Assembly (NCBI GenBank): GCA_019751945.1
Contig: JAIEMT010000014.1
Span: 118,686-182,685 of the forward strand
Direction of reading: 5' to 3'
Length of the DNA stretch: 64,000 nucleotides
Source: a bacterium
GTDB taxonomy: Bacteria; Bdellovibrionota; UBA1018
A program made the translations under genes and the position numbers. Each line of letters opens with the position of its first letter. Position 1 is the first letter of the stretch. The notes beneath the pieces are model-generated. The model was given only the letters and a program-made list of their open reading frames with translations, ran no database searches and was not told where the DNA came from. This document shows, piece by piece, positions 2,084 through 31,536 of this stretch.

Positions 2084-4201
2084 ATGGCAAAAGACAAAGA
2101 CGATTCAGGTGAAGTAGCTCCTCCATCAGGGGTAAAAGTCCCACCCAGACCCGCACTTTTCGTGGGTCGCAAAGTAGTTGTTCTGCAAAGTGTTGATGGA
2201 GATCGCACCTATCAGTTCAATAAAGACCGCATTGTCATCGGCCAAGTGATTTCGGCAGACGTACGCCTCACAGGCGACTGGATTGCGCCCATTCATGCAG
2301 TTCTTGAAGTCCGGAAGTCTCAAGACGATAAGTACATTTGTACGATTTATGATCTAGCCAGCGAATCGGGCGTTTTCGTCAATGACAAGAAAATCATCAG
2401 CCAAGGTTTAAAAGACGGGGACACCATTAAACTGGGTCGTTACCAGCTGAAGTTCTCCCTCGAAGATGCGGACAAAGTTGCTTCGCGCCAGAAACGAAAG
2501 ATTAAGGACTCAGGCGATCAGCAACTCTACATGGATCCCAAAGAGGATTTCACGTCCCTCATTCTTCAAGATGAGATGGAAGTGGAAGAAATCTTCGACT
2601 ATCGCCCTGCGAAGAAGCAGGCCGTAGAAGTCGTCATGTCCTGGAGAGGGACCATTCTCGACGTCGAGCACTACGTGAACCAGAAAACAATTACCATCGG
2701 TGGTTCGAAGGCGTGCGATTTCGCCGTTCCTCCTACCTTGGGCCCAGGCAGTTTCAATTTGCTGAAGTTCACTCAAGGTCGTTACGTTTTGAATCTGCAT
2801 CCGAAGATGTCGGGTGTGCTACAAAGCCATGGCGAAGTCATCGATATTCAGAATCTCACTACCAAGGCAGCAAAGGGCGTCGAAGGCGGCGAGTTGCCTC
2901 TCGAACAAGATGAGTTTGCAAAAATCAGTGTAGGAGAGGTCGACTTCTATGTGAGCTTCACCGCGGCTCCCCCGCGACTTAAGCATCGCCGCATGTTCGA
3001 GCGCGATCCCTATTATTACCGCGTTCTCGCTACCTCGGTGGTATTCACTGCCGCGATTGTCGGCATGCTCTTGAGCGTGGATGTTCCAAAAGATTTGGAA
3101 GCTGAAAAGATTCCGGAACGTATCGCCACCGTTCTCTATCAGCCTGAGAAATTCATGATCCCACCGATTCCGAGAGTTCAGGAAAAGAAGCCCGAACCGG
3201 AGAAGGTAGAGCCTCCGAAACCGAAACCCACTCCTAAGGAGACGGTGAAAGTGGAGATTCAGCCTCAGAAGGATCCGCCCAAGGTCATTCCGAAGGAAAT
3301 GGATGTTTCGAAACCAAAAGTTCAGCCCAAGCCCGCTCCGCAACCTACGAAGGTTGCTGTGAAAGCGCCTGAACCAAAACCGGTCAAAGCTGCGGCTCCG
3401 AAGGCGCAACCTGCAGCTAAAGAAGGCGAGGGCGCTCGAGCAAAGGGGCCTGAGGGAACACGTGGATCTCAGAAAGCACCTCCTGCGGATGTTCCTCAGA
3501 AGAAGGCCAATCGTCCGTCTACTTCGAACACCGGAACCGCCGGTGTTCGTGGCAACAGCCAGGTTCCAGGTCCGGGCAACGTCGACGTCCTAAAAGGCAT
3601 GACGGCGCAGATTCAAAACGTCTTAGGAAACACGGCTGGAAAATTTGGTTCTGGCGGTGGCAAGAAACTCGAAGGTTACGGCGCGTTTGACACCCAAGGG
3701 AGTGGCGGAGCAGCTCTTTCCGGCCGCGCTTCCGGTGGTGGTGGCAATGCAGAGGCCCTCGGTGGATTAAGCGACAGGGGCAGCGGCGGGGGTCGCGTCG
3801 GCACGGGTAAAGGTGCTGCCGGCAACGCTTCGGGAATTATCGGCGGACAGCTCCGCGTCGGCATTCGTGTCGGAGCTCCTGAAGAAGCAGTGGTCATGGG
3901 TGCCATCGATGCCAACGCTATCGAAGCAGCCTTGCTCGCTTATCGCGACAATTTCCGCAACTGTTACGAAAAGGAAATCAATGCGGAGCGCCCGGATCTC
4001 TCCGGTCGGGTCAGCACCAACTTCGTGATCGGGTCTTCGGGACGTGTGACTCAAGCAGGGATCGAATCCAGCACACTGAAGAACGAGCGAGTCGAACGCT
4101 GTATTGTTGGCGTGATTCGGCGAATTCCATTCCCCATCCCGAAGGGTGGCGGAATCGTGCAAGTGACCTACCCGTTCAAGTTCAATCCGCTGAAACGGTA
4201 G
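2084..4201 (+). CDS. FHA domain / Pro-Lys-rich linker / AgmX-TonB-type C-terminus protein, GltG-like
   Basis: N-terminal FHA-like sequence (ITIGGSKACDFAV / IVIGQVISADVRL), one TM segment (ATSVVFTAAIVGMLLSV), EPEKVEPPKPKPTPKE linker, Gly-rich stretch, C-terminal TonB/AgmX-like domain (YRDNFRNCYEKEINAERPDLSGRVSTNFVIGSSGRV). Confidence 0.75.
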   Translation: MAKDKDDSGEVAPPSGVKVPPRPALFVGRKVVVLQSVDGDRTYQFNKDRIVIGQVISADVRLTGDWIAPIHAVLEVRKSQDDKYICTIYDLASESGVFVNDKKIISQGLKDGDTIKLGRYQLKFSLEDADKVASRQKRKIKDSGDQQLYMDPKEDFTSLILQDEMEVEEIFDYRPAKKQAVEVVMSWRGTILDVEHYVNQKTITIGGSKACDFAVPPTLGPGSFNLLKFTQGRYVLNLHPKMSGVLQSHGEVIDIQNLTTKAAKGVEGGELPLEQDEFAKISVGEVDFYVSFTAAPPRLKHRRMFERDPYYYRVLATSVVFTAAIVGMLLSVDVPKDLEAEKIPERIATVLYQPEKFMIPPIPRVQEKKPEPEKVEPPKPKPTPKETVKVEIQPQKDPPKVIPKEMDVSKPKVQPKPAPQPTKVAVKAPEPKPVKAAAPKAQPAAKEGEGARAKGPEGTRGSQKAPPADVPQKKANRPSTSNTGTAGVRGNSQVPGPGNVDVLKGMTAQIQNVLGNTAGKFGSGGGKKLEGYGAFDTQGSGGAALSGRASGGGGNAEALGGLSDRGSGGGRVGTGKGAAGNASGIIGGQLRVGIRVGAPEEAVVMGAIDANAIEAALLAYRDNFRNCYEKEINAERPDLSGRVSTNFVIGSSGRVTQAGIESSTLKNERVERCIVGVIRRIPFPIPKGGGIVQVTYPFKFNPLKR

Positions 4202-4204
4202 AAA

Positions 4205-4336
4205 AACAGTTTGCGGTTTGCAGTCTGCGGCCACAGGCATCAGTCTGCAGAAGCCGTCCCATCTAACAGTTGCCAACAGAAACAGCCCCAGCCTCAGCAA
4301 ACGGATGCCAGCTTCCGCAAACTGCAAACTGTTTTG
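4205..4336. repeat. ORF-less palindromic element with arms built from about 7-bp GTTTGC(G/A) units, filling the gap between convergent genes
   Basis: Left arm aaaacagtttgcggtttgcagtctgcgg...; right arm ...ccgcaaactgcaaactgtttt is its inverted counterpart; related to 25605..26080. Confidence 0.7.
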
Positions 4337-4912
4337 TTACCCGTTTTTCTTCATCGCTAAGAACCGGAAAGTTCTGTAGCCAGCAGCTGCCGCAGTGTAC
4401 ATGATCTTTCGAAGCGTATCGTATCGGATGCGCTTGTCGGCTTGAATGGCTAACACGCCTTCGAAAGGAAGCGGATTTCCCTGAGCATCGCGGGCCTTCG
4501 ACTTCACTTGGAGAAGTTCTGCGCGCTGGCGAGCTTTCATCAGGGCATCATATAAAGGCACAATTCTTCGGCCGCCTTCATCCAAAGAAGTGGGATTAAA
4601 CTGATAAACAGCTTCGTCAGAACCTGCTGCAGCAGCGTTCTGTACAAAATCCATAATGCGCTGATTGTCGATGGTGAGCGCTTCAGGTGTTACAATCACC
4701 TGTAAGCTATCGGGCGGAAGATCGCGTGAGCCAGTCATCGGAAGCTGAATTCCATTTACCGACGCAAAGTTCGTTGTGCTCGCCGAATAAGTTTTTAGCA
4801 AGAAGATAAGAATAATGACCAACACGTCCATTAAGCTCGTTAACTGGAGCTCAAAGTCCTTCTGAATTCTTCTGCGGGTTCTGCGCGACTGAATGGAGCG
4901 ACGGAATGCCAT
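4337..4912 (-). CDS. ExbD/TolR-family motor protein, AglS-like
   Basis: Single N-terminal TM after RRIQKDFELQLTSLMDVLVIILIFLLKTY; adjacent to a second ExbD and a TolQ. Confidence 0.75.
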   Translation of the reverse strand: MAFRRSIQSRRTRRRIQKDFELQLTSLMDVLVIILIFLLKTYSASTTNFASVNGIQLPMTGSRDLPPDSLQVIVTPEALTIDNQRIMDFVQNAAAAGSDEAVYQFNPTSLDEGGRRIVPLYDALMKARQRAELLQVKSKARDAQGNPLPFEGVLAIQADKRIRYDTLRKIMYTAAAAGYRTFRFLAMKKNG

Positions 4913-4915
4913 CTC

Positions 4916-5461
4916 TTATGCGTCTCCCAAAAGATTTCCGAAAATCACATTCGGAAAAAGATTTTTCAACGGCTCGTCGTTGCCAGTCTGTTCGTTCTTT
5001 TGAAAAATCGGCGGATCGCCCGCTTCCATCGTTCGGAAGGAGTCCATCACCACAATCAATTCGTCGTAAGTGTTTCCAGAGGCAGGAATAATCACGATCG
5101 AGTTTTCTTTCGGAAACTGCTTCTTCACCCCAATCAAGACATCGTGAATGCCTTGTGCGTTGGGCGTGCCGTCCGGATTGTGAGGGACCTTCTTCGGAGC
5201 AATCTTGTTAAACGGACTCCAAATTTCAGCGCCACTTTCTTTCAACGTCACGGTCAGCTGCAAGGGTTTTTCTTTCAGCTTTTCTTGAATCTGTTTGGTG
5301 CTCGCCGTGGGGAAGGGCGATTCAATACTTCCCAAACTCAAGAACGACATCGTGAAGAGCAAGAACGTAATCAGGGTGACCATGGCATCCAAAATCGGAA
5401 CCAGGTTCAGAACAATTCCACCTTGATGCGTTTTGCGGCGGGAACTCGGGCGTTTAAACAC
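4916..5461 (-). CDS. ExbD/TolR-family motor protein, AglQ-like
   Basis: GGIVLNLVPILDAMVTLITFLLFTMSF ExbD TM with conserved Asp. Confidence 0.75.
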   Translation of the reverse strand: MFKRPSSRRKTHQGGIVLNLVPILDAMVTLITFLLFTMSFLSLGSIESPFPTASTKQIQEKLKEKPLQLTVTLKESGAEIWSPFNKIAPKKVPHNPDGTPNAQGIHDVLIGVKKQFPKENSIVIIPASGNTYDELIVVMDSFRTMEAGDPPIFQKNEQTGNDEPLKNLFPNVIFGNLLGDA

Positions 5462-5468
5462 GCTCTAG

Positions 5469-6137
5469 TTACTCCTTCTCGGATGAGTGCCGATATTTGC
5501 GAGCCGACAAAAGATCCAAAAGCTTCACGCCGAACTCGTCGATCTCTTCCAGAATCTTCGTCGCCTGATTGGTCAGAATGCTATGCGAGACCATCGTGAA
5601 AATCGCGGTGATCAAACCAAATGCCGTCGCATTCATGGCCAGAGCGATACCCGCCGACAACGCTGCTTGGCGCTGTGCCGGATCGGCTTGCTGAGAAATC
5701 GCATCGAAGGAAGCGATCAGACCGAAGATCGTTCCCAAGAGTCCCAAGAGGGTGGCGATGTTGGCAATCAACGCTAAGAAGGGAATTCGCTTCTCGAGCT
5801 TCGGAATCATTTCCAAGCTTGCCGCGTCGATGGCGTTTTGAATCTGCTGCTCATCGCGGGAAGCGCGCTGAAGGCCAGCTTTGATGACCTTTGGAAGCGC
5901 CGCTCCTCCTGCGCCGTTACAGACGCGGATGGCTCCGTCCAGGTCGTTGGCCAGAATGAACTTCTGGACTTCGAACATGAAGGAAGGACCGTCGATGTTG
6001 TATTTTCTAAAGAGTCGCGCGAATCGTTCGAGCGTCAGACCGATTGAAATTCCCAAGGTACAGGCAATCAAGCCCATCCAGAAATTGTGTGAACGAAAGG
6101 CGTCCATGACCAGCTTTACCAAGCTCGGTAGATCCAT
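5469..6137 (-). CDS. MotA/TolQ/ExbB proton channel family protein, AglR-like
   Basis: TolQ signature: IPFLALIANIATLLGLLGTIFGLIASF ... GIALAMNATAFGLITAIFTM. Confidence 0.8.
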   Translation of the reverse strand: MDLPSLVKLVMDAFRSHNFWMGLIACTLGISIGLTLERFARLFRKYNIDGPSFMFEVQKFILANDLDGAIRVCNGAGGAALPKVIKAGLQRASRDEQQIQNAIDAASLEMIPKLEKRIPFLALIANIATLLGLLGTIFGLIASFDAISQQADPAQRQAALSAGIALAMNATAFGLITAIFTMVSHSILTNQATKILEEIDEFGVKLLDLLSARKYRHSSEKE

Positions 6138-6227
6138 GAGCTTTCCCCCTAAGTCGGATATGATTGTTCAATAAACTTCGTATCTTAACTTAAGGATACC
6201 GGATTTCGCGGAGCGGTCAACCTGTTC

Positions 6228-6563
6228 TTAAGCCAGGTGTTTTTGAATGGCTTCGACGAAGGCTTCTTTGGGCTGATTTCCAACCAATTGCTCGACGACT
6301 TTCCCGTTTTGGAAAAGGATGACGGTCGGAATTCCACGAATATGGAACTGGGTCGGGGTTTGCGGATTCTCATCCACATTCATTTTAAAGACTTTTACCT
6401 TGCCAGTGTATTCATCCGCCAAAGAATCGATGGTCGGGCCCAAAAGCTTACAAGGACCACACCATTCCGCCCAGAAATCTACCAAAGTGAGTTCATTAGA
6501 CTTCAAAATATCGCTGTTGAAATTGGAGTCGGTTGCTTCTTGAACGTGTTTGGAGTTCGCCAT
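6228..6563 (-). CDS. trxA: Thioredoxin
   Basis: LVDFWAEWCGPCKLLGPTIDSLA active site and complete fold length (111 aa). Confidence 0.95.
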   Translation of the reverse strand: MANSKHVQEATDSNFNSDILKSNELTLVDFWAEWCGPCKLLGPTIDSLADEYTGKVKVFKMNVDENPQTPTQFHIRGIPTVILFQNGKVVEQLVGNQPKEAFVEAIQKHLA

Positions 6564-6682
6564 GGTTGTGAGTACCTTTCTTAGTCTATTTTAATACAAA
6601 ACCTTGGTGTTTTTATCAAAAAATAGATAACTTCTGCCTACTATCCCTAGCATTTGGCGACCGCAGGGTCGAGGAAAAGGAT

Positions 6683-7276
6683 ATGGCGAATAGTGTAATG
6701 GATCCCAAAGCCTACCTCTTGCAAACCGCAACCGAGTCTCGTGCTGCTTTCGACGATTTTTTGACACTCAACCAAGATTCTTTAGTTCAGGCCGCCCGAA
6801 AGATAGGCCAGTGCGTTAAGGAGGGGGGCAAGCTGTTGATCCTTGGAAATGGGGGATCGGCTGCCGATGCCCAGCACATGGCTGCTGAAATGGTCGGAAA
6901 AATGCTGGTGGATCGCCGTCCGCTTCCAGCCATTGCTCTCACTACTGATTCCTCGAACATTACTGCCATTGGGAATGATTTTGGATACGATCAGGTTTTC
7001 GTAAAACAAGTCCAGGCTCTCGCAAAAGCGGGGGATGTGGTTCTGGCCATCTCCACCTCCGGCAACAGTAAGAATGTGATTTTCGCCGTAGAAGAAGCCA
7101 AGAAAAAAGGCTGCCTCGTGATCACTTTAACAGGCGGCAGTGGTGGTAAATTGAAAGCGCTAGGAGATCTCGCGCTCAATGTGGCTCAAGGAAAGAACTC
7201 CAGTCGCATTCAAGAGAGCCATATTTTCGCCGTGCACAGCATGGTGGATTTATTGGATCGATTTTTTTTAGACTAG
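6683..7276 (+). CDS. gmhA: SIS-domain phosphoheptose isomerase
   Basis: LLILGNGGSAADAQHMAAEMVGK, LTTDSSNITAIGNDFGYDQVF; SD-like gaggaaaagg upstream. Confidence 0.85.
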   Translation: MANSVMDPKAYLLQTATESRAAFDDFLTLNQDSLVQAARKIGQCVKEGGKLLILGNGGSAADAQHMAAEMVGKMLVDRRPLPAIALTTDSSNITAIGNDFGYDQVFVKQVQALAKAGDVVLAISTSGNSKNVIFAVEEAKKKGCLVITLTGGSGGKLKALGDLALNVAQGKNSSRIQESHIFAVHSMVDLLDRFFLD

Positions 7277-7282
7277 GAGAGT

Positions 7283-7726
7283 ATGCGCCATCTCAAAGTC
7301 TTCGTTCTGAATCGAGTTGTCGCAAAGGTCATGGACCTGCTCTTAGTAATTGCGGTGGCAGCGATTCTTCCTTATCCGCTTGGGCCACTTCTCGGTTTCA
7401 TTTACAGCTTGTTAGCAGATGGCTTGAACTTCGGTCCCTTTCAGGGGCAGAGCGTAGGCAAGCGCGTCTTAGGACTCAAGGTTTTAAATACCGTGCGAAA
7501 GGCTCCTGCGACGTACCGGGACTCGGCCCTTCGGAATGCTCCGGTGGGAGTGGCGACTTTCTTTGCCATCATTCCAGTCTGGGGTTGGTTCATTCTCTTC
7601 CTCGTGGGAATTCCCCTCATGGCCATGGAAATCTACTTAATGCTGAGCGTCGGCAACGGGCACCGCTTGGGCGATGTGATGGGCGATACAGAAGTAGTGG
7701 TTGAAGCTGCGCAGCCGCAGAAGTAG
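7283..7726 (+). CDS. RDD family membrane protein
   Basis: RVVAKVMDLLLVIAVAAILPYPLG ... GQSVGKRVLGLKVLN ... DSALRNAP. Confidence 0.8.
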   Translation: MRHLKVFVLNRVVAKVMDLLLVIAVAAILPYPLGPLLGFIYSLLADGLNFGPFQGQSVGKRVLGLKVLNTVRKAPATYRDSALRNAPVGVATFFAIIPVWGWFILFLVGIPLMAMEIYLMLSVGNGHRLGDVMGDTEVVVEAAQPQK

Positions 7727-21689: not shown

Positions 21690-22691
21690 CTACCACCTCA
21701 TGAGCAAGCTGCCATAGGTCAGACCTGCTCCGAAAACGTCGAAGAGAACGACTTGTCCGGGTTTTACTCTTCCATCGCGAACTGCTTCGTCAAAAGCTGT
21801 CGGAGTTGTTGCCGCTGAGGTGTTACCGAATTTATCGATATTAATCAGAGTGCGCTCGGCCGGAAACTCGAGACGCTTTGCCACTGCTTCGATGATTCGG
21901 AGATTTGCTTGGTGAGGAACAAACCAGTCGACATCGCTCAGCGAAAGCCCGTTTGCTTTCACTGCTTCTTCAGCAAAGTCCGCTAAAGTTTTCACAGCGA
22001 CTTTGAAAATTTCTTTTCCCTTCATGGTCATCTTGTCGAGACGCTTTTCATGAATCTCTGGGGTGACGGGCTGATTCGACCCACCTGCGTGAATGTAGAA
22101 AAGGTCCCAAAGGCTTCCGTCCGTTCTTAAATGGCTAGAGAGGATACGCTGAGGGGAGTCGGCAGCTGTTTGTTCGAGAATAAACGCACCCGCGCCATCC
22201 CCGAATAAAATGGCTGAAGTCCGATCTTCCCAGTTCACAAAGCTGCTGAGAACTTCTCCGCCCACGACCAAGACAGTCTTTACCTGGCCATTGCGGATAT
22301 ACATATCCGCAGTTGAAAGAGCGTAAACAAAGCCGGAACAAGCGGCGTTGACGTCCAGGGCCCACGCTTTTTTTGCGCCCAATTTCTTTTGGAGCCAACA
22401 TGCTGTCGATGGAACCAGCGTATCTGGTGAACAGGTAGCGAACAGAATGGCGTCGATATCTTCGACTTTCTTCCCGGCCATTTCTAGCGCGCGAAGGGCA
22501 GCTTGATAGCCTAGCGAAGAATTCTGTTCGTGCTCACTGCCGGGCTGAGAAATACGACGCTGACGGATGCCGGTTCGCTCGGAGATCCAAGCATCGTTCG
22601 TATCCAGAGTTTTAGCCAGATCGTCATTAGTGACAACCCGGGCTGGAAAAGCTGATCCTGTGCCGCTGACTCGCGAAGCGAATTGGCTCAT
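21690..22691 (-). CDS. fabH: Beta-ketoacyl-ACP synthase III
   Basis: VTNDDLAKTLDTNDAWISERTGIRQRRI, NAACSGFVYAL, DVFGAGLTYGSLLMRW. Confidence 0.95.
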   Translation of the reverse strand: MSQFASRVSGTGSAFPARVVTNDDLAKTLDTNDAWISERTGIRQRRISQPGSEHEQNSSLGYQAALRALEMAGKKVEDIDAILFATCSPDTLVPSTACWLQKKLGAKKAWALDVNAACSGFVYALSTADMYIRNGQVKTVLVVGGEVLSSFVNWEDRTSAILFGDGAGAFILEQTAADSPQRILSSHLRTDGSLWDLFYIHAGGSNQPVTPEIHEKRLDKMTMKGKEIFKVAVKTLADFAEEAVKANGLSLSDVDWFVPHQANLRIIEAVAKRLEFPAERTLINIDKFGNTSAATTPTAFDEAVRDGRVKPGQVVLFDVFGAGLTYGSLLMRW

Positions 22692-22694
22692 GGA

Positions 22695-22901
22695 TTAGTT
22701 TTGCTGAGCAGATACTTCTTTGGTTTTCGGTTTGAATACCGCTTTGCCTTCGTAGAAACCGCAGGCGCAAACGCGATGGGGGCGCTTGGGTTCGCTACAG
22801 TTCGGGCAGCTATTTGTCGTCACCACTTCGAGGCGATTGCCACCCGCGAAACGACGCATGTTTCTTCTGCTTCGGGATACTTTTTTCTTAGGTACGGCCA
22901 T
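22695..22901 (-). CDS. rpmF: 50S ribosomal protein L32
   Basis: MAVPKKKVSRSRRNMRRF ... CPNCSEPKRPHRVCACGFY. Confidence 0.95.
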   Translation of the reverse strand: MAVPKKKVSRSRRNMRRFAGGNRLEVVTTNSCPNCSEPKRPHRVCACGFYEGKAVFKPKTKEVSAQQN

Positions 22902-23562
22902 TTTCCATCTCCTTTAATACTGAGAACGGGTTGTTCTTAGCGATCTGTTTGCAGGCGCAGCGACCGGTGTTCCAGTCGGCTCCGCACTGACTGCACATTC
23001 CTTTACAGGATTCTTTGCACAACGGTTGAAACGGTATTTGGAGCTGCAGCTGTTCTGTGAGAACCGCGCTCAAATCAATGAAGTCATTTGAAATATAGGT
23101 AATATCTAAATCTTGTGTAACCTCGGTGCTGCTCTCATCGGACTCTGGGCTAGCAGCGTGTCGCGCCCAACCGCGGTTCTGTCCGCCAGGCTTCGAGGCT
23201 TTTTGATTTAAGTAGCCCACGCCTGCCATGACGGGGTCTTTACAGAAAAGAGCCGAGAAGTGGTGCTTCGCTGCGAATGAAAAATAAGAAGCACAGCGAC
23301 TGCAAATTAAACGGATAGAGGTGTCATAGTCTCCCGTCGCAATCACGACTTCGTCGACTTTTCTTAAAGAGAAGTCCGCGCGCACGTTTCGCGGCTGTGG
23401 AGCCTTAGATCGAGAAGGATTTCGCAACAGCTCTGAAACAGCAGGCGACGAATCGTGAGATTCCTCATCGACCGCTTCAACTGAATCGAGAACCCACTTC
23501 TCTTCTTGCGTGAAGGAGAGTTCTTTCTCGAGATCTGAGAGTTCGTGTAAATAAACCTTCAT
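22888..23562 (-). CDS. YceD/DUF177 family protein
   Basis: CSRC...QLQLQIPFQPLCKESCKGMCSQCGADWNTGRCAC immediately upstream of rpmF. Confidence 0.85.
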   Translation of the reverse strand: MKVYLHELSDLEKELSFTQEEKWVLDSVEAVDEESHDSSPAVSELLRNPSRSKAPQPRNVRADFSLRKVDEVVIATGDYDTSIRLICSRCASYFSFAAKHHFSALFCKDPVMAGVGYLNQKASKPGGQNRGWARHAASPESDESSTEVTQDLDITYISNDFIDLSAVLTEQLQLQIPFQPLCKESCKGMCSQCGADWNTGRCACKQIAKNNPFSVLKEMENGRT

Positions 23563-23635
23563 GATTTACCAAATAGTTACCAACTAAGAGTTTAAGGGTG
23601 TGGACATTAGCTTGCGTGGGTGAGCAGAGTCAACC

Positions 23636-24730
23636 CTAAAGCGAAGTTAGAGGCTCAGGTAAATAGCTTCCGGCCTTAGTTGCAACCCATTGAACTTGAT
23701 GGGTCTTTTGGAACTTTTTCCAGCGAGGACCTTGAAGCTGCAAGGCCTGGAGAGGGTGCTCGGTCAGGTGGGCTAAACTGGATATTAAAACGTCTTTCGG
23801 TTTGATTTTTTCGCTCTGAGATTCGATCAAAATCCAGTCATGAAAGGCGTCTGAAAGAAGTCTTCCTCCTCCAGCGAGGTGCCCCCCTTTGGTTCGAGAG
23901 GCTCCATCGGCGAAGTGAACTTGAAGGGTGCCAAAGGCGTGATGAGAACCCGTGGTTGTTTCCGCTGCCGATACACAGTCAGAGATGAAACAGAGCCTGC
24001 CCTTCTTGGAGCCTGCGTGAAGGCGTTTCATCCACCGAATCAGAGTGGGGGCGAGGTGAACTTGATCGATGATCACTTCGAGATGCGTTCCAGGCCTGCC
24101 CAGTGCAGCTCCTAAGATGCCGGGACTGCGGTGGTGAAAGGCGAGCGCATTCCATGCGTGAGTGACTCCGCTAAAGCCGTTTTCAAACGCAGTGTGACCT
24201 TGATGTTCGGTGGCTTGAGAGTGGCCAGCGGATAAAATCACCTCGTGCCTTTTGGCCCAATTCTTTAAAGATAACAACTGCTCAGGGCTAAGGAGTTCGG
24301 GTGCAATGGTCAGAAGTTTCAGCGTCTTCTGGCTGGCTTCGTACAAGGACTCGAGTTCCTGCATGTTGAAAGCGCGAATCGTGTTTTTGGGATGAGCTCC
24401 GCAGGCCATGGGGCTCAAAAAGGGCCCTTCGAGATGAATTCCCAGGGGAAGAGCGCCGGATGCTGTTTTCTCATCCCCGGATTTGTTCCAGGCTTTTCGA
24501 ATCCATGCCCCGATTTTTTGAACGGACGAAGTGAGGTCGGACTCTGAAGCAGAAAGGGTGGTGGGACAAAAACCAGCAATTCCCTTTTGCCAAAGCGCGC
24601 GCGCGAGTTCCTCGAAATCCTTCGAGGAACCAGTCATTAAGTCGATTCCGAAAGCCCCGTGAAAATGGAGGTCAATGATTCCGACGGTCCGCGGTAATTT
24701 ATTCTTGACGGCGCTACTTTGGCGTGGCAC
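23636..24730 (-). CDS. nagA: N-acetylglucosamine-6-phosphate deacetylase (GTG start)
   Basis: IIDLHFHGAFGIDL, GIHLEGPFLSPMACGAHP, ILSAGHSQATEHQ, GVTHAWNAL, FISDCVSA. Confidence 0.85.
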   Translation of the reverse strand: MPRQSSAVKNKLPRTVGIIDLHFHGAFGIDLMTGSSKDFEELARALWQKGIAGFCPTTLSASESDLTSSVQKIGAWIRKAWNKSGDEKTASGALPLGIHLEGPFLSPMACGAHPKNTIRAFNMQELESLYEASQKTLKLLTIAPELLSPEQLLSLKNWAKRHEVILSAGHSQATEHQGHTAFENGFSGVTHAWNALAFHHRSPGILGAALGRPGTHLEVIIDQVHLAPTLIRWMKRLHAGSKKGRLCFISDCVSAAETTTGSHHAFGTLQVHFADGASRTKGGHLAGGGRLLSDAFHDWILIESQSEKIKPKDVLISSLAHLTEHPLQALQLQGPRWKKFQKTHQVQWVATKAGSYLPEPLTSL

Positions 24731-24744
24731 CCAAATACGGTACC

Positions 24745-25599
24745 ATGACAGATCCGAAGAAAAAAGCTGCCCCTATCCTTGCAAAAAAGCCGGCTCAGAA
24801 AGGCATGCCCGTACCTCCTATGAAGAAACCTCCTGTGAAGGCTGCTGCCCTGGCTGTGAAAGCAGCTGGCAAACCCGCCGCTCCTGCGAAGCCGTCTCGT
24901 TTCGATTCCATTAAAAAAATGATTTTAGGTGGCGGAGCCCCGGCCAAAGGAGCTGCCCTTGCAAAAGCTCATCCGGCACCTGCTGCTAAGGGTAAGAAGG
25001 CGGTAACACCTCCCCCAGCTCCGGCGAAAGCCGTTGCAGCTGCAAAGGGTGCCAAGGGCGCCGCTGCAAAAACTGCGGTGGCTCCAGCGCTACCGGCGAA
25101 AGGTGCCAAAGGTAAAGCGGGAGCGGTTGTTGCTGCTCCGGTTGTTGCCCCGGCTCCGCTGACAAAAGCTCCTAAGAAAGGCAAGAAGGGCAAAGCCGCA
25201 CAAGAAAGTACTTTTGCTGGGAAGGCGGCTGCTGGCACTTCATTGGCAGATGGACACGGCGATGCCGTTTGTCGCGAAGTGGCTTGTGAAAATTTGGCGA
25301 CGACAGCGGGCTACTGCCGACTGCACTACATTAAGAATTGGAAAAAGATTAAGCGCAAGGATCTCATTTTGCGCGAGAAGAAACTCAATCAGTACATTGA
25401 AGAACTGGTTGCGAAGTATCCCGATAAATATATCGAAGCGATCCGTCAGGACCTCGCGAATGATAAGGAATTTGCCAAGGTCATCACCGACCTCGATCTC
25501 GATGAGTCGATGGATGATTTTGAGGGCGATTCTGAGAATGTCGAGGCAATCATCGACACTATTAAGCGCGAGTATGATGACGAGGGTGAATCGTTCTAA
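24745..25599 (+). CDS. Lys/Ala/Pro-rich (histone H1-like) N-terminal tail fused to a small Cys/His-motif domain and acidic C-terminus
   Basis: KKKAAPILAKKPAQK...KAVAAAKGAKGAAAK tail; CREVACENLATTAGYCRLHY motif; DLDLDESMDDFEGD acidic C-terminus. Confidence 0.7.
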   Translation: MTDPKKKAAPILAKKPAQKGMPVPPMKKPPVKAAALAVKAAGKPAAPAKPSRFDSIKKMILGGGAPAKGAALAKAHPAPAAKGKKAVTPPPAPAKAVAAAKGAKGAAAKTAVAPALPAKGAKGKAGAVVAAPVVAPAPLTKAPKKGKKGKAAQESTFAGKAAAGTSLADGHGDAVCREVACENLATTAGYCRLHYIKNWKKIKRKDLILREKKLNQYIEELVAKYPDKYIEAIRQDLANDKEFAKVITDLDLDESMDDFEGDSENVEAIIDTIKREYDDEGESF

Positions 25600-25604
25600 C
25601 TAAC

Positions 25605-26080
25605 CAGTTTGCTGTTTGCGGTTTGCGGTTTGCAGAAGCGGGCATCTGTTTGCTGAAGCGGGTTCTGTTAACTGTTTGGGGCATTAACTAGTCGGTAAAT
25701 GTGGCCACCAAGTTTGTCACAGAGTTGAACGGTTTCAGTGGGTGGTTGTTTCACTAAATCAAGAAGAGCGCAGCACTCCCGTTGCGATCCAAGAGCAATC
25801 CTGTAGAAACGAACGCGGTCACGATGAGTACCTTTGGCGGACCCTTCTGCCAGGTTCAAGACTATGCTTGATGAAGCGCGAAGCAGCTGGTCCTGAAGGT
25901 GCAATGGCAATCGCACTTCCCGTGCCTTACGGTAGAACTCTACTGCTAGTTGATAGCTACGAAATTTCTGAAGACTCACTCAAGGGGACAATCAAATCCG
26001 GTGCCAAAAGCAACAGACTGGCAGTAACAGCTACCGCAGACAGATGCCCGCTTCAGCAGACCGCAAACAGCAAACTGTCT
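25605..26080. repeat. Large inverted-repeat element (GTTTGC-type 7-bp unit arms) enclosing a four-helix-bundle protein gene
   Basis: Left arm cagtttgctgtttgcggtttgcggtttgcagaagcgggcatctg; right arm gacagatgcccgcttcagcagaccgcaaacagcaaactg is its inverted copy; element abuts stop codons of both flanking convergent genes. Confidence 0.8.
25668..25979 (-). CDS. Four helix bundle protein (23S rRNA intervening-sequence protein / Avd-like family)
   Basis: FRSYQLAVEFYRKAREVRLPLHLQDQLLRASSSIVLNLAEGSAKGTHRDRVRFYRIALGSQRECCALLDL; GTG start. Confidence 0.85.
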   Translation of the reverse strand: MSLQKFRSYQLAVEFYRKAREVRLPLHLQDQLLRASSSIVLNLAEGSAKGTHRDRVRFYRIALGSQRECCALLDLVKQPPTETVQLCDKLGGHIYRLVNAPNS

Positions 26081-26685
26081 CAGTGTTTCTTTCGAGGATC
26101 CCCGGGAGGAAACACAAAGTGTTTACTAATCTCTTTCTCCCTCGTCTCCTCAAATTCCGCATCTTCTATCAAGGAGTCCGGATCATTCTTAGCAAGCCAA
26201 TCGTCGGCCATTTGATCGAGGCCCAAATTCGCTTTGTCCACTCGAACGTAGAGAGTCTTTTTCTCGACTTCCATTTGTGCCCATTTAAACGGGATATCTT
26301 TAAACGAGGCGAGGGAGTTGTCAGCCAAGAGCTCCATCTTTTCTTTGTCAGTGGGGTCAAAAACTTTTTGCATGACGTTGGCAACAGCATCAATGCAGAG
26401 CGAAAGCAGGTCTTCGAGCTTTGGGCTACTGGCTTTGGGATCGAAATCGCTGCTGGCGTAAAAGGTGGTTGAAGCCAGCGCTTTTTCTGTAACCAGGGAG
26501 ACTGCGAGAATCACTTCGTCGGGAAAAACTTCCGCAGAAGCTTGAAACTTGGTCGGAGATTTTAATTTTGCGAGAGCCTTGAGGCCGTCACTAAAATGAT
26601 TCGTAAAAACTTCTTGAACCATTTTTGTAAAATCTACGGGAAGGGGCTGTCCTTTTCCGGCTGAGGTTTTTCTACGTTCTATCAT
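26080..26685 (-). CDS. Hypothetical protein
   Basis: 201 aa ORF directly downstream of the protease gene on the same strand; stop codon abuts the repeat element. Confidence 0.65.
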   Translation of the reverse strand: MIERRKTSAGKGQPLPVDFTKMVQEVFTNHFSDGLKALAKLKSPTKFQASAEVFPDEVILAVSLVTEKALASTTFYASSDFDPKASSPKLEDLLSLCIDAVANVMQKVFDPTDKEKMELLADNSLASFKDIPFKWAQMEVEKKTLYVRVDKANLGLDQMADDWLAKNDPDSLIEDAEFEETREKEISKHFVFPPGDPRKKH

Positions 26686-27783
26686 TTACAGAATTCCTTG
26701 AGGCACTTCATCGAGCTTCGGGAGTTCTTGAAGCTGAATGGAAGGATCCATCGTTTTATTATTTCGTCTCACCTTGAGTGTGATCTTATCGGTCGGCTTG
26801 AGTTTTGCGAGTTGGCGTTCCAAATCGTAGGGTTCTTTGATGTCGACACCGTTTGCTTTGACAATAATGTCGCCCTGCTTGATTCCGGCATCCAGAGCGG
26901 GTCCGTCTTTTACGAGGTTGAGTACAATGACTCCCTTATCCACCGGAAGATTATAGTAGCTGGCAATGGCAGGGGTGACTCGTTCACCCAAAACGCCGAG
27001 CCAAGGACGAGGAACGCGACCATAGCGTTTCAAATCCGCGAGAATCTGTTTTGCTTCGTTGATGGGAATTGCAAAACCAACCCCGCTGCTCTGACCCGTT
27101 CGCGAAAAAATCACGGTGTTAATTCCTACCACTTCGCTTTTGAGATTAAAGAGAGGGCCTCCGCTGTTGCCAGGGTTAATGGAGGCATCGGTTTGAAGAA
27201 AGTTGTCAAAAGGGCCTAGTCCGATCGTGCGATTTTTTGCGCTGATAATTCCCATCGTCACCGTGTGCTGAAGGCCGAAGGGATTGCCCACGGCAAAGAC
27301 GGCTTCAGCGATTCGAACTTTGTCGGAATCCGCGAGGGCAACGGGTTTTAAACCGGGCGGAACTTTTCGATTGCTGTCGCGAATCTGTAAAAGCGCGACG
27401 TCCATCTTTTGATCTTTACCGATAATCTTTGCTCGAAACTGGCGTTTGTCGATAAGCGTCACCATCACTTCATCGGAATGCGCGACGACGTGATTGTTCG
27501 TTATGACATAGCCGTCAGTGTCGATGATGAAGCCCGAGCCGAGAGAGGTATTTTTTCTCTCCTGGGGAACTCCCCAGAATCTCAAGAACTCATCCATTCC
27601 AAAAACATTGTTGGTCACCGTGTTGGCGCTGACGTTCACCACCCCGGGCAAAACTTTTTCGACTAAGTCGGGCAGGTTTGCGGGTGCCACATTTGCAGAT
27701 GCGTCGCGTTGCGCAATGTGTGGTGCAGAGAATAACAAAAGGAAGAAAAGGCTCCATTTGAGGTGTTTTTTGGGGGTTCTCAT
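26686..27783 (-). CDS. Periplasmic trypsin-like serine protease with PDZ domain (DegP/HtrA family)
   Basis: Signal peptide; GSGFIIDTDGYVITNNHVV, MDVALLQI, SINPGNSGGPLFN; PDZ near the C-terminus. Confidence 0.93.
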   Translation of the reverse strand: MRTPKKHLKWSLFFLLLFSAPHIAQRDASANVAPANLPDLVEKVLPGVVNVSANTVTNNVFGMDEFLRFWGVPQERKNTSLGSGFIIDTDGYVITNNHVVAHSDEVMVTLIDKRQFRAKIIGKDQKMDVALLQIRDSNRKVPPGLKPVALADSDKVRIAEAVFAVGNPFGLQHTVTMGIISAKNRTIGLGPFDNFLQTDASINPGNSGGPLFNLKSEVVGINTVIFSRTGQSSGVGFAIPINEAKQILADLKRYGRVPRPWLGVLGERVTPAIASYYNLPVDKGVIVLNLVKDGPALDAGIKQGDIIVKANGVDIKEPYDLERQLAKLKPTDKITLKVRRNNKTMDPSIQLQELPKLDEVPQGIL

Positions 27784-27844
27784 GAGTCCTGATTTATGCC
27801 AAAGTCGGACCTCCATTTCAACCTATTCTAAAGAGGACGTGCCT

Positions 27845-29023
27845 ATGACCGAAGTCGTGATTGCAAGCGTAGCAAGAACACCGATTGGGAACTTTTTGGG
27901 AGCACTTTCCAGTATTCCAGCGCCCAAGCTAGGCGCTACAGCAATCGAGGCGGCCCTCAAAAGAGCAGGTGTGAATGCCGACCAGGTTTCTGAAGTCATC
28001 ATGGGCAACGTGCTCCCAGCGGGGGAAGGTCAAGCTCCGGCGCGTCAAGCTGCGATCTTCGCGGGCATTCCCAAGTCGGTTCCGGCTTTGACGATCAATA
28101 AAGTTTGTGGAAGCGGAATGAAAGCGCTCATGCTCGGTACACAATCCATCTTGTTGGGTGACAGTGAAGTCGTGGTTGCCGGCGGAATGGAAAACATGAG
28201 CCAGGTTCCCTACATTATTCCGGGTGCCCGAACGGGTTTGCGCATGGGGCATCAGCAGATCGTCGATGCCATGATTTATGACGGTCTTTGGGATCCCTAC
28301 AGCAATCAGCACATGGGCAATTGCGGGGATCTCTGCGCGAAGGAAAGAAATTTTTCTCGAGAAGAGCAAGATCGTTACGCCATTCAAAGTTACAAGCGCG
28401 CTCAAGAAGCTCAAAAGGGTGGGAAATTTCAATTCGAAATCGCTCCGGTTTCGATTACTGGCAAGAAGGGGGATGTCACTCAGATTTCTGAGGACGAAGG
28501 TCCTGGCAAAGCCCAGTTCGACAAGATTCCTACCTTAAAGCCTGTTTTCGATAAGTCGGGAACGATTACGGCCGCGAATTCTTCTCCCGTCAACGATGGC
28601 GCTGCAGCATTGGTTTTGATGTCGGCAGAGAAGGCCAAGCAACTCGGCGTGAAGCCGCTTGCGAAAATCGTTTCTTACGGCACGCATGCTCAGGCACCGG
28701 AATGGTTCACCACCGCTCCAGCAGATGCCATGCGCAAGGCTGCGAAGAAGGCCGGCTGGGAAATGAACAGCATCGACTTATTCGAAGTGAATGAGGCCTT
28801 CGGTGTCGTTGCTTTGGCAGCTCAGAAGGAATTGCAAATTCCTGAGCAGAAATTGAACGTTCGCGGTGGGGCAATTGCATTGGGCCACCCGATTGGCGCG
28901 AGTGGAGCTCGAATCGTGATCACCTTGCTTGCGGCTTTGAAGGACATGAATTTGAAGCGCGGAATGGCAGGCATTTGTATCGGCGGCGGCGAAGCCACTG
29001 CGATTTGCATCGAACGGATTTAG
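27845..29023 (+). CDS. Acetyl-CoA C-acetyltransferase (thiolase)
   Basis: [68 protein letters not shown]. Confidence 0.95.
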
Positions 29024-29025
29024 CG

Positions 29026-29721
29026 ATGAAGAAAACTGTTTCGGATGCCAAGGACGCAGTAAAAGATATTCCGGATGGAGCCGTGCTTGCTCTGGGCGGA
29101 TTTGGTCTCTGCGGAATTCCTGAAAACTGCATCGGAGCCCTCGTCGAAAAAGGCGTGAAGAATCTGACCTGCATTTCCAATAATGCAGGGGTGGACGATT
29201 TTGGAATCGGTCTTCTGCTTCAGCGTCGACAAGTGAAGAAAATGATTTCGAGTTACGTCGGTGAGAACAAGCTCTTTGAAAGCTTGGTGCTTTCAGGGGA
29301 ATTGCAGGTGGAGCTCACTCCGCAAGGAACTCTCGCTGAAAAATTGCGCGCAGGTGGGGCTGGGATTCCCGCGTTCTTCACTCCCACTGGTGTGGGCACC
29401 ATTGTGGCGGACGGCAAAGAAGTGCGCGATTTTGACGGCCGGAAATATGTTCTAGAACGTTCTTTGAAGGCGGACTTCTCGATCGTGAAAGCCTGGAAAG
29501 GCGATTCGATGGGAAATCTGGTTTTTAGAAAAACGGCGCGGAATTTTAATCCGGTGGTTGCCGTTGCCGGAAAAATTACGATTGCCGAAGTGGAAGAGTT
29601 GGTGCCGGTCGGATCGATCGATCCCGATCAGGTTCACGTTCCCGGAATCTACGTTCAAAGAATTTTCCAAGGAAAGAATTACCAGAAGCGCATTGAGAAG
29701 CGGATGCTTCGAAACGGATAA
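29026..29721 (+). CDS. 3-oxoacid CoA-transferase subunit A
   Basis: GGFGLCGIPENCIGAL, NNAGVDDFGIGLLL, RKTARNFNPVVA. Confidence 0.92.
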   Translation: MKKTVSDAKDAVKDIPDGAVLALGGFGLCGIPENCIGALVEKGVKNLTCISNNAGVDDFGIGLLLQRRQVKKMISSYVGENKLFESLVLSGELQVELTPQGTLAEKLRAGGAGIPAFFTPTGVGTIVADGKEVRDFDGRKYVLERSLKADFSIVKAWKGDSMGNLVFRKTARNFNPVVAVAGKITIAEVEELVPVGSIDPDQVHVPGIYVQRIFQGKNYQKRIEKRMLRNG

Positions 29722-29724
29722 ACT

Positions 29725-30381
29725 ATGGCACTCAGTCGTGAACAGATTGCTCAAAGAATTGCTCAAGAGTTGAAAGACGGATTCTACGTGAATCTTGGGA
29801 TTGGAATCCCCACGCTCGTCGCAAATTACATTCCTCAGGGAATTTCTGTGATTCTGCAGAGTGAAAATGGGCTGCTCGGAATTGGGCCGTATCCCACCGA
29901 AAGTGAAATCGATTCGGATTTGATCAATGCTGGCAAAGAAACGGTGACTGTCATGCCGGGAAGCTCTTTTTTCTCGAGTGCCGATTCATTTGCCATGATT
30001 CGCGGCGGTCATGTGGACCTGACCGTGTTGGGTGCGATGGAAGTGGACGAGCAAGGCAATCTCGCCAACTGGATGATTCCCGGAAAAGTGGTGAAGGGGA
30101 TGGGCGGCGCGATGGATTTGGTCGCGGGCTCTCCGAACGTCATCGTGGCCATGCAGCATGTCTCGAAAGATGGTCAGAGCAAGGTGTTGCCGAAGTGCCA
30201 GCTTCCGTTGACGGGTGTTGGTGTTGTGAAGAAGATCGTAACGGAATTGGCGATGATCGAAGTGACTCCGCAGGGTTTGGTTTTGCGTGAGCGCGCGCCG
30301 GGTGTTTCGGTCGATGAAATCAAGAAAGCAACCGCTGCGAAGTTAACGGTCCCGGCTCAAGTCGCTGAAATGCGATTGTGA
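29725..30381 (+). CDS. 3-oxoacid CoA-transferase subunit B
   Basis: [52 protein letters not shown]. Confidence 0.93.
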
Positions 30382-31338: not shown

Positions 31339-31536
31339 CTCGCCTTTGGTTGGGTTGGGTTGGGTTGGGTTGGGTTGGGATTCTCGGAAATGAGATGCGC
31401 TGGGATCCGAAATTAGAGCGAAATCTGAGGTTGTCACAGATTCCCTCTCATAACCTCTGGGATGAGTGGAGGGCATACCGCAGAAGTGAGGCGAACCCTT
31501 CTCTGCCTTTCCCAACCAAACCCAACCAAAGGCGAG
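31339..31536. repeat. Palindromic element with TTGGG tandem-repeat arm (G-quadruplex-capable)
   Basis: ctcgcctttggttggg (31339-31354) and perfect reverse complement cccaaccaaaggcgag (31521-31536); left arm continues as GGG(TT GGG)x4. Confidence 0.8.

What the first reader, a model, noticed from the sequence alone, without database searches (positions are those of the whole stretch)
25605..26080. Four-helix-bundle (IVS-protein/Avd-like) gene inside a long palindromic cassette that fills a convergent intergenic gap
Seen: the 104-codon ORF is bracketed by inverted arms of about 40-70 bp made of GTTTGCG/GTTTGCA-type units plus a shared core (agaagcgggcatctg / cagatgcccgcttc). The cassette starts 5 bp after one stop codon and its other end reaches the stop codon of the opposing gene. 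Known: this family is encoded in intervening sequences of 23S rRNA, which are also palindromic stems, and is related to the DGR accessory protein Avd. Inference: a mobile or RNA-level element living outside rRNA genes.
Basis: partly seen in the sequence, partly recalled or inferred. Interest (0 to 1): 0.75.

Follow-up and report, generated by a model that had tools for sequence, protein, structure and literature searches.

The report
Dispersed IVS-like palindromes carrying four-helix-bundle genes
A small hairpin-shaped DNA cassette that carries a gene known mainly from inserts in bacterial ribosomal RNA has spread, with and without its gene, into gaps between protein genes of this bacterium, so it can now be asked directly whether such inserts are mobile and whether their one protein moves them.

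Summary
Observation confirmed. A 103-aa gene (PF05635/TIGR02436, 23S-rRNA-intervening-sequence protein, IVP) sits at the centre of a 473-bp palindrome filling a convergent gap. Both refutation criteria fail: the arms recur, and the site is empty in relatives. In the 3.2-Mb genome the arms recur as 12 complete gene-less palindromes (about 125 bp) at unrelated sites, absent from 54 other genomes of the class. In eight relatives the same convergent pair has only -4 to 145 bp between its stops; at a second palindrome one relative has a 1-bp gap. The genome holds about nine further IVP genes in cassettes with other arm words, some as head-to-head pairs. In other phyla too, IVP genes are bracketed by inverted, 5-8-bp-periodic repeats; several lie beside tRNA genes. 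I read this as an IVS-like mobile hairpin element outside rRNA with IVP-bearing and gene-less forms. That IVP itself drives spread is inferred: no recombinase is encoded, and neither reverse transcriptase nor Y1 transposase tracks the elements. One relative has two 98%-identical copies with 6-7-bp flanking repeats, so a carrier DNA transposase stays a serious rival. The link to Avd is fold-level only.

The parts
25605..25675 (+). left arm of the palindrome: 7-bp GTTTGCx units, shared core GAAGCGGGCATCTG, inner CTGTTAACTGTT end
   Evidence: recurs elsewhere in the genome
25668..25979 (-). IVP (four-helix-bundle) gene, 103 aa, GTG start, no clear Shine-Dalgarno; its stop codon lies inside the left arm
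   Evidence: PF05635 and TIGR02436; AlphaFold pLDDT 96, four helices, best PDB match 2gsc
26010..26077 (-). right arm of the palindrome, inverted copy of the left arm
24724..25599 (+). convergent neighbour, Ala/Lys-rich 291-aa protein with a conserved C-terminal part; half of the gene pair used for the empty-site test
26080..26685 (-). convergent neighbour, 201-aa conserved protein, found in 28 of 35 genomes of the family
4209..4329 (.). gene-less palindrome of the same family in the convergent gap between 2738-4201(+) and 4337-4912(-); one relative has a 1-bp gap here

Best explanation
This is an IVS-like mobile palindromic element outside rRNA. SHOWN: an imperfect long palindrome whose centre carries the IVP gene; lineage-specific insertion flush with the stop codons of a convergent gene pair; 12 complete gene-less copies of the same palindrome at unrelated sites, in this genome only; paralogous IVP cassettes with other arm words in the same and related genomes. 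INFERRED: the cassette is the gene-bearing form and the bare hairpins are derivatives maintained in trans; read-through RNA from the 201-aa gene folds into the hairpin (RNase III-type substrate and 3'-end barrier), which makes insertion at transcript 3' ends nearly harmless, as IVSs are in rRNA helices; the IVP oligomer (homopentamer in the solved Xanthomonas relative, per PMC4990558) binds the repeated arm words on hairpin nucleic acid and is needed for propagation, probably with host replication/repair or a host recombinase, because the cassette encodes no enzyme.
For: Dispersed copies and lineage restriction; empty sites; gene at position 68-72 of the 138-nt aligned palindrome, its centre; convergent bias, 10 of 13 against 99 of 731 junctions, p=4e-7, 9 of 12 if only complete copies are counted; outer 20 bp of the arms nearly invariant while the centre drifts, as for recognised ends; paralogous cassettes mostly flush with stop codons with ORF 3' ends running into the arm words; purifying selection on IVP, median dN/dS 0.17; same arm architecture in other phyla: inverted flanks 70% v 19% control, periodic flanks 37% v 2%; 11 of 12 tRNAs found in 60 IVP loci lie within 500 bp of the IVP gene, with palindromes of short repeated words between tRNA and IVP; two 98%-identical copies at unrelated sites in KLAP30.
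Against: No transposition observed; no recombinase in the cassette; no target-site duplication visible for the GTTTGC family; in KLAP30 the duplicated unit has transposon-like ends outside the IVP pair. Covariation between arms is slight (3 of 33 pairs), so sequence rather than fold may be conserved. The window gene has a GTG start and no clear ribosome site. Position bias could come from selection instead of targeting. Flank statistics are not corrected for phylogeny.
Confidence: 0.55

Rival explanations
1. IVP cassettes and bare hairpins are MITE-like passengers moved in trans by an ordinary DDE transposase that recognises the inverted ends; IVP is cargo or a regulator.
For: Two KLAP30 copies share 949 bp at 98% with ends CTCCCTC/GAGGGAG and flanking repeats CAAGGTT and CACGGA, typical of DDE transposition. 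Conserved outer arm ends.
Against: No GTTTGC-flanked gene other than IVP was seen among the arm matches; no duplication visible at the GTTTGC sites; the IVP-plus-arms design recurs with unrelated arm words in many phyla, which one transposase family would not explain.
Confidence: 0.25
2. The hairpins are bidirectional terminators or 3'-end stabilisers kept by selection, and the IVP gene is a domesticated regulator that entered one of them; little or no autonomous mobility.
For: Convergent-gap position flush with stops; relatives have ordinary terminator-like hairpins in the same gap (L261, L245); strong fold, z = -11.7.
Against: Many copies in one genome of 55, with shared arm sequence at unrelated sites, require recent dispersal; the sites are empty in relatives.
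Confidence: 0.1
3. REPIN-type elements moved by Y1 (RAYT/IS200-like) transposases.
For: Seven Y1_Tnp genes in the genome; paired inverted arms in intergenic gaps resemble REPINs.
Against: None of the six Y1 loci examined carries GTTTGC arms; a single arm does not fold above chance, z -0.4, -1.4, +0.95; Y1 presence does not track IVP elements, p=0.42, and KLAP30 (G017) has none.
Confidence: 0.05
4. Retro-mobility using a DGR or other reverse transcriptase, with IVP acting like Avd.
For: Fold similarity of IVP to Avd; two DGRs in the genome.
Against: RT genes in 9 of 21 IVP genomes and 15 of 34 others, p=1.0; G017, G041 and G042, rich in IVP, show none. The DGRs have their own Avd.
Confidence: 0.05

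Closest known systems
ORF-bearing intervening sequences (IVS) of 23S rRNA, e.g. the 428-nt Coxiella burnetii IVS (PMC4990558)
   Same: Stem of inverted ends, IVP/S23p ORF in the loop, similar size, 7-bp tandem repeats beside the ORF (GACAGAT in Coxiella), transcribed context
   Different: Here outside rRNA, at the 3' junction of two protein genes, with many dispersed gene-less copies; RNase III processing untested
REP/REPIN elements with RAYT transposases (PMC2817692, PMC3116915)
   Same: Small intergenic palindromes with one gene-bearing relative in the genome
   Different: No Y1 transposase in or beside the element; arms do not fold singly; the only gene is IVP
MITEs and their parent insertion sequences
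   Same: Conserved inverted ends, gene-less copies, lineage-specific spread, empty sites
   Different: No parent transposase identified; the internal gene encodes a four-helix bundle
Avd of diversity-generating retroelements
   Same: Four-helix-bundle fold (TM 0.60-0.62 to 4dwl)
   Different: Different NCBIfam family, no RT or variable protein beside it; the true Avd genes are elsewhere in the genome

Membership tests
PF05635 / TIGR02436 IVP protein family | match above the curated cut-off | tested here: met
   54.9 bits against 33.8, and 55.5 against 24
PF05635 / TIGR02436 IVP protein family | four-helix bundle of the S23p type | tested here: met
   AlphaFold pLDDT 96; best PDB match 2gsc, E 4e-4, TM 0.73
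23S rRNA IVS element | insertion within a 23S rRNA helix | tested here: not met
   lies between two protein genes; no rRNA in window 22000-30000 or in 60 related loci
23S rRNA IVS element | terminal inverted repeats forming a stem with the ORF in the loop | tested here: met
23S rRNA IVS element | excision by RNase III | not testable with these tools
   needs RNA; a long stem is predicted
REP/REPIN | each half is itself a small hairpin | tested here: not met
   single arms fold no better than shuffles
REP/REPIN | cognate Y1 transposase flanked by the same repeat | tested here: not met
   six Y1 loci carry no GTTTGC words
MITE | target-site duplication | tested here: inconclusive
   none visible in the GTTTGC copies; 6-7 bp at the KLAP30 copies
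MITE | empty sites in relatives | tested here: met
DGR Avd | Avd family match with neighbouring RT, template and variable repeats | tested here: not met
   no NF033474 match for the window protein; the genome's RTs are on other contigs, C26 and C36

The most novel reading that the evidence does not exclude
IVP proteins define a separate class of mobile hairpin elements, of which 23S rRNA IVSs are one niche: a single hairpin-binding oligomer, without a recombinase of its own, propagates palindromes into transcript ends and spacers (mRNA 3' junctions, tRNA spacers, rRNA helices) across many phyla and supports gene-less satellites.
Probability: 0.3. Interest if true: 0.92.

Novelty: new variant of a known kind. 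Interest (0 to 1): 0.7.

Why it matters
Whether IVSs are mobile, and whether their ORF serves mobility, has been an open proposal since the early 1990s (discussed in PMC4990558). Here gene-bearing and gene-less forms, empty sites, paralogous cassettes and near-identical copies exist side by side outside rRNA, so both questions become testable by comparison and in a laboratory host. I found no paper in the held library that describes dispersed IVP palindromes outside rRNA; most subscription journals and preprints are not covered.

Tried and rejected
Reverse-transcriptase link: not supported by co-occurrence. Y1/RAYT link: not supported. Rfam family: none. Constraint on pairing between head-to-head IVP genes: a large apparent effect shrank to pS 0.53 v 0.64, p=0.005, once only pairs of the same genome were compared, so it is a weak hint at most. 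Covariation support for the hairpin: slight. Gene-less relatives of the other own-genome arm families: none clear in the 0.9 Mb searched. Target-site duplication for GTTTGC copies: none seen by eye.

Full report
OBSERVATION. The finding is real. The minus-strand ORF 25668-25979 (103 aa) lies in a palindrome whose arms are 25614-25667 / 26022-26075 (54 nt, 83%) and 25605-25626 / 26056-26077 (22 nt, 95%). It fills the gap between a plus-strand gene ending at 25599 and a minus-strand gene ending at 26080. The protein matches PF05635 and TIGR02436 above their cut-offs. AlphaFold gives a confident four-helix bundle (pLDDT 96) whose best solved match is 2gsc, the Xanthomonas S23p/IVP protein. The sense RNA (minus strand) folds with the arms paired and the ORF between them, z = -4.2.

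THE ARMS RECUR. Searching the whole genome (3.23 Mb, 71 contigs) with one arm gives about 30 matches, mostly back-to-back inverted pairs. Twelve are complete gene-less palindromes of about 117-135 bp (C3, C4 three times, C5, C8, C11, C15, C23 twice, C32, C43); others are fragments or cut by contig ends. Copies are 75-89% identical to the query copy in their better orientation, near-invariant over the outer 20 bp and variable in the centre. Aligned with these, the window element differs by one large insertion, the IVP gene, at position 68-72 of 138, the centre. The family was found in none of the 54 other genomes of the class searched.

EMPTY SITES. The convergent gene pair around the window element is conserved. 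In eight relatives of the same family the two stop codons are separated by -4, -4, 12, 39, 45, 78, 93 and 145 bp, without the palindrome or IVP (some hold a terminator-like hairpin); here by 480 bp. Four other relatives keep the pair with 496-710 bp of other sequence between. At the gene-less copy 4209-4329 one relative has a gap of 1 bp against 135 bp here; in others the genes are not adjacent or other sequence lies between. The relatives are other genera, so the ancestral gap length is an inference.

POSITION. With a simple codon-usage gene caller, 9 of 12 complete GTTTGC copies examined (10 of 13 with one fragment) lie in convergent gaps, 3-19 bp after one stop and -2 to 12 bp before the other, while 99 of 731 gene junctions and 14% of intergenic bases in 843 kb are convergent; p = 4e-7 for 10 of 13. 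This may be targeting or the survival of harmless insertions; I cannot separate the two.

OTHER CASSETTES. The genome holds about nine more IVP genes. One (C55) has its own palindromic arms of CCGTAA/CCGTAG words. Others are head-to-head pairs (C14, C60; remnants in C12, C28) around a central hairpin with GGAG ribosome-site-like sequence on both sides, so that read-through from either direction would meet a sense gene (inference); ORF ends run into arm words (HPKPKP from CCGAAACCG). Most are also flush with convergent stops. In the class, 21 of 58 genomes have IVP genes of this type, up to 11 matches per genome, many paired. Median dN/dS among close pairs is 0.17: the protein is under purifying selection.

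BROADER PATTERN. In 55 IVP loci with complete flanks, inverted similarity between the two flanks and 5-8-bp periodicity exceed same-locus controls (rank tests p = 1.5e-8 and 1e-24, not corrected for relatedness); in phyla other than Bdellovibrionota 70% v 19% and 37% v 2%. Of 60 loci scanned with Rfam none holds rRNA; 12 tRNAs were found, 11 of them within 500 bp of the IVP gene, in candidate-phyla, Margulisbacteria and Bacteroidota MAGs, with palindromes of short repeated words between tRNA and IVP in several. IVP elements thus tend to sit at ends or spacers of transcripts, of which 23S rRNA helices are the known case.

MOBILITY. Two copies in MAG KLAP30 are 98% identical over 949 bp at unrelated sites, with CTCCCTC/GAGGGAG ends and 6-7-bp flanking repeats: recent movement, but possibly as cargo of a DNA transposon. 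Neither reverse transcriptases (9/21 v 15/34, p = 1) nor Y1 transposases (13/21 v 17/34, p = 0.42) track IVP elements, and six IVP genomes show neither (several assemblies are incomplete). Single arms do not fold and no Y1 locus examined has these arms, so this is not a REPIN system.

MECHANISM. Shown: palindrome, gene at its centre, dispersal, lineage-specific insertion, gene-less copies. Inferred: RNA hairpin with RNase III-type processing, IVP binding to arm words, IVP-dependent propagation with host enzymes. The Coxiella IVS paper (PMC4990558) reports the same plan in rRNA, including 7-bp repeats by the ORF, RNase III excision and the homopentameric Xanthomonas structure, and recalls the unresolved proposal that the ORF serves mobility.

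VERDICT. A dispersed, IVS-like palindromic element outside rRNA with IVP-bearing and gene-less forms. Filed as a new variant of a known kind because the protein family and the hairpin-with-ORF plan are known, while location, copy number, gene-less satellites and paired forms are not described in the papers I could search.

Noticed in passing
L060 (G000:C36:1-12000) 2186-6204 and L061 (G000:C26:28000-38000) 3701-7640: Two diversity-generating retroelements in the same genome, each with RT, Avd (NF033474 match) and a C-type-lectin-like variable protein.
   Followed up: partly
L111, L120, L128, L130, L141, L146: IVP genes next to or between tRNA genes in candidate-phyla, Margulisbacteria and Bacteroidota MAGs, several with a palindrome of 6-7-bp words directly after the tRNA.
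   Followed up: partly
L078 2526-3475 and L079 727-1676: Near-identical 949-bp transposon-like units carrying an IVP pair, with 6-7-bp flanking repeats.
   Followed up: partly
G000 C4:44347-44732, C1:255752-255901, C11 about 92259-92405, C3:37625-37771: Other long near-perfect palindromes, probably unrelated MITE-like repeats.
   Followed up: no
window 31348-31379 and 31511-31536: (GGTTG)6 tandem repeat with an inverted CCCAACC stretch about 130 bp away.
   Followed up: no
L065 3589-4267, L063 3529-4223: Head-to-head IVP gene pairs forming a giant hairpin with mirrored ribosome-binding sites.
   Followed up: partly
L114, L115, L122, L127, L144, L148: Opitutaceae-type MAGs carry IVP after a same-strand gene of about 450-520 aa with TTCTCG-type arms, possibly one conserved site.
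   Followed up: no
L223 (G000:C8:73545 region) and C8:73059-73270: A Y1 transposase gene near a CTTTCTGCCTGACGCCC inverted repeat, a candidate true RAYT/REP pair; similar repeat at C3:82751-82962.
   Followed up: no
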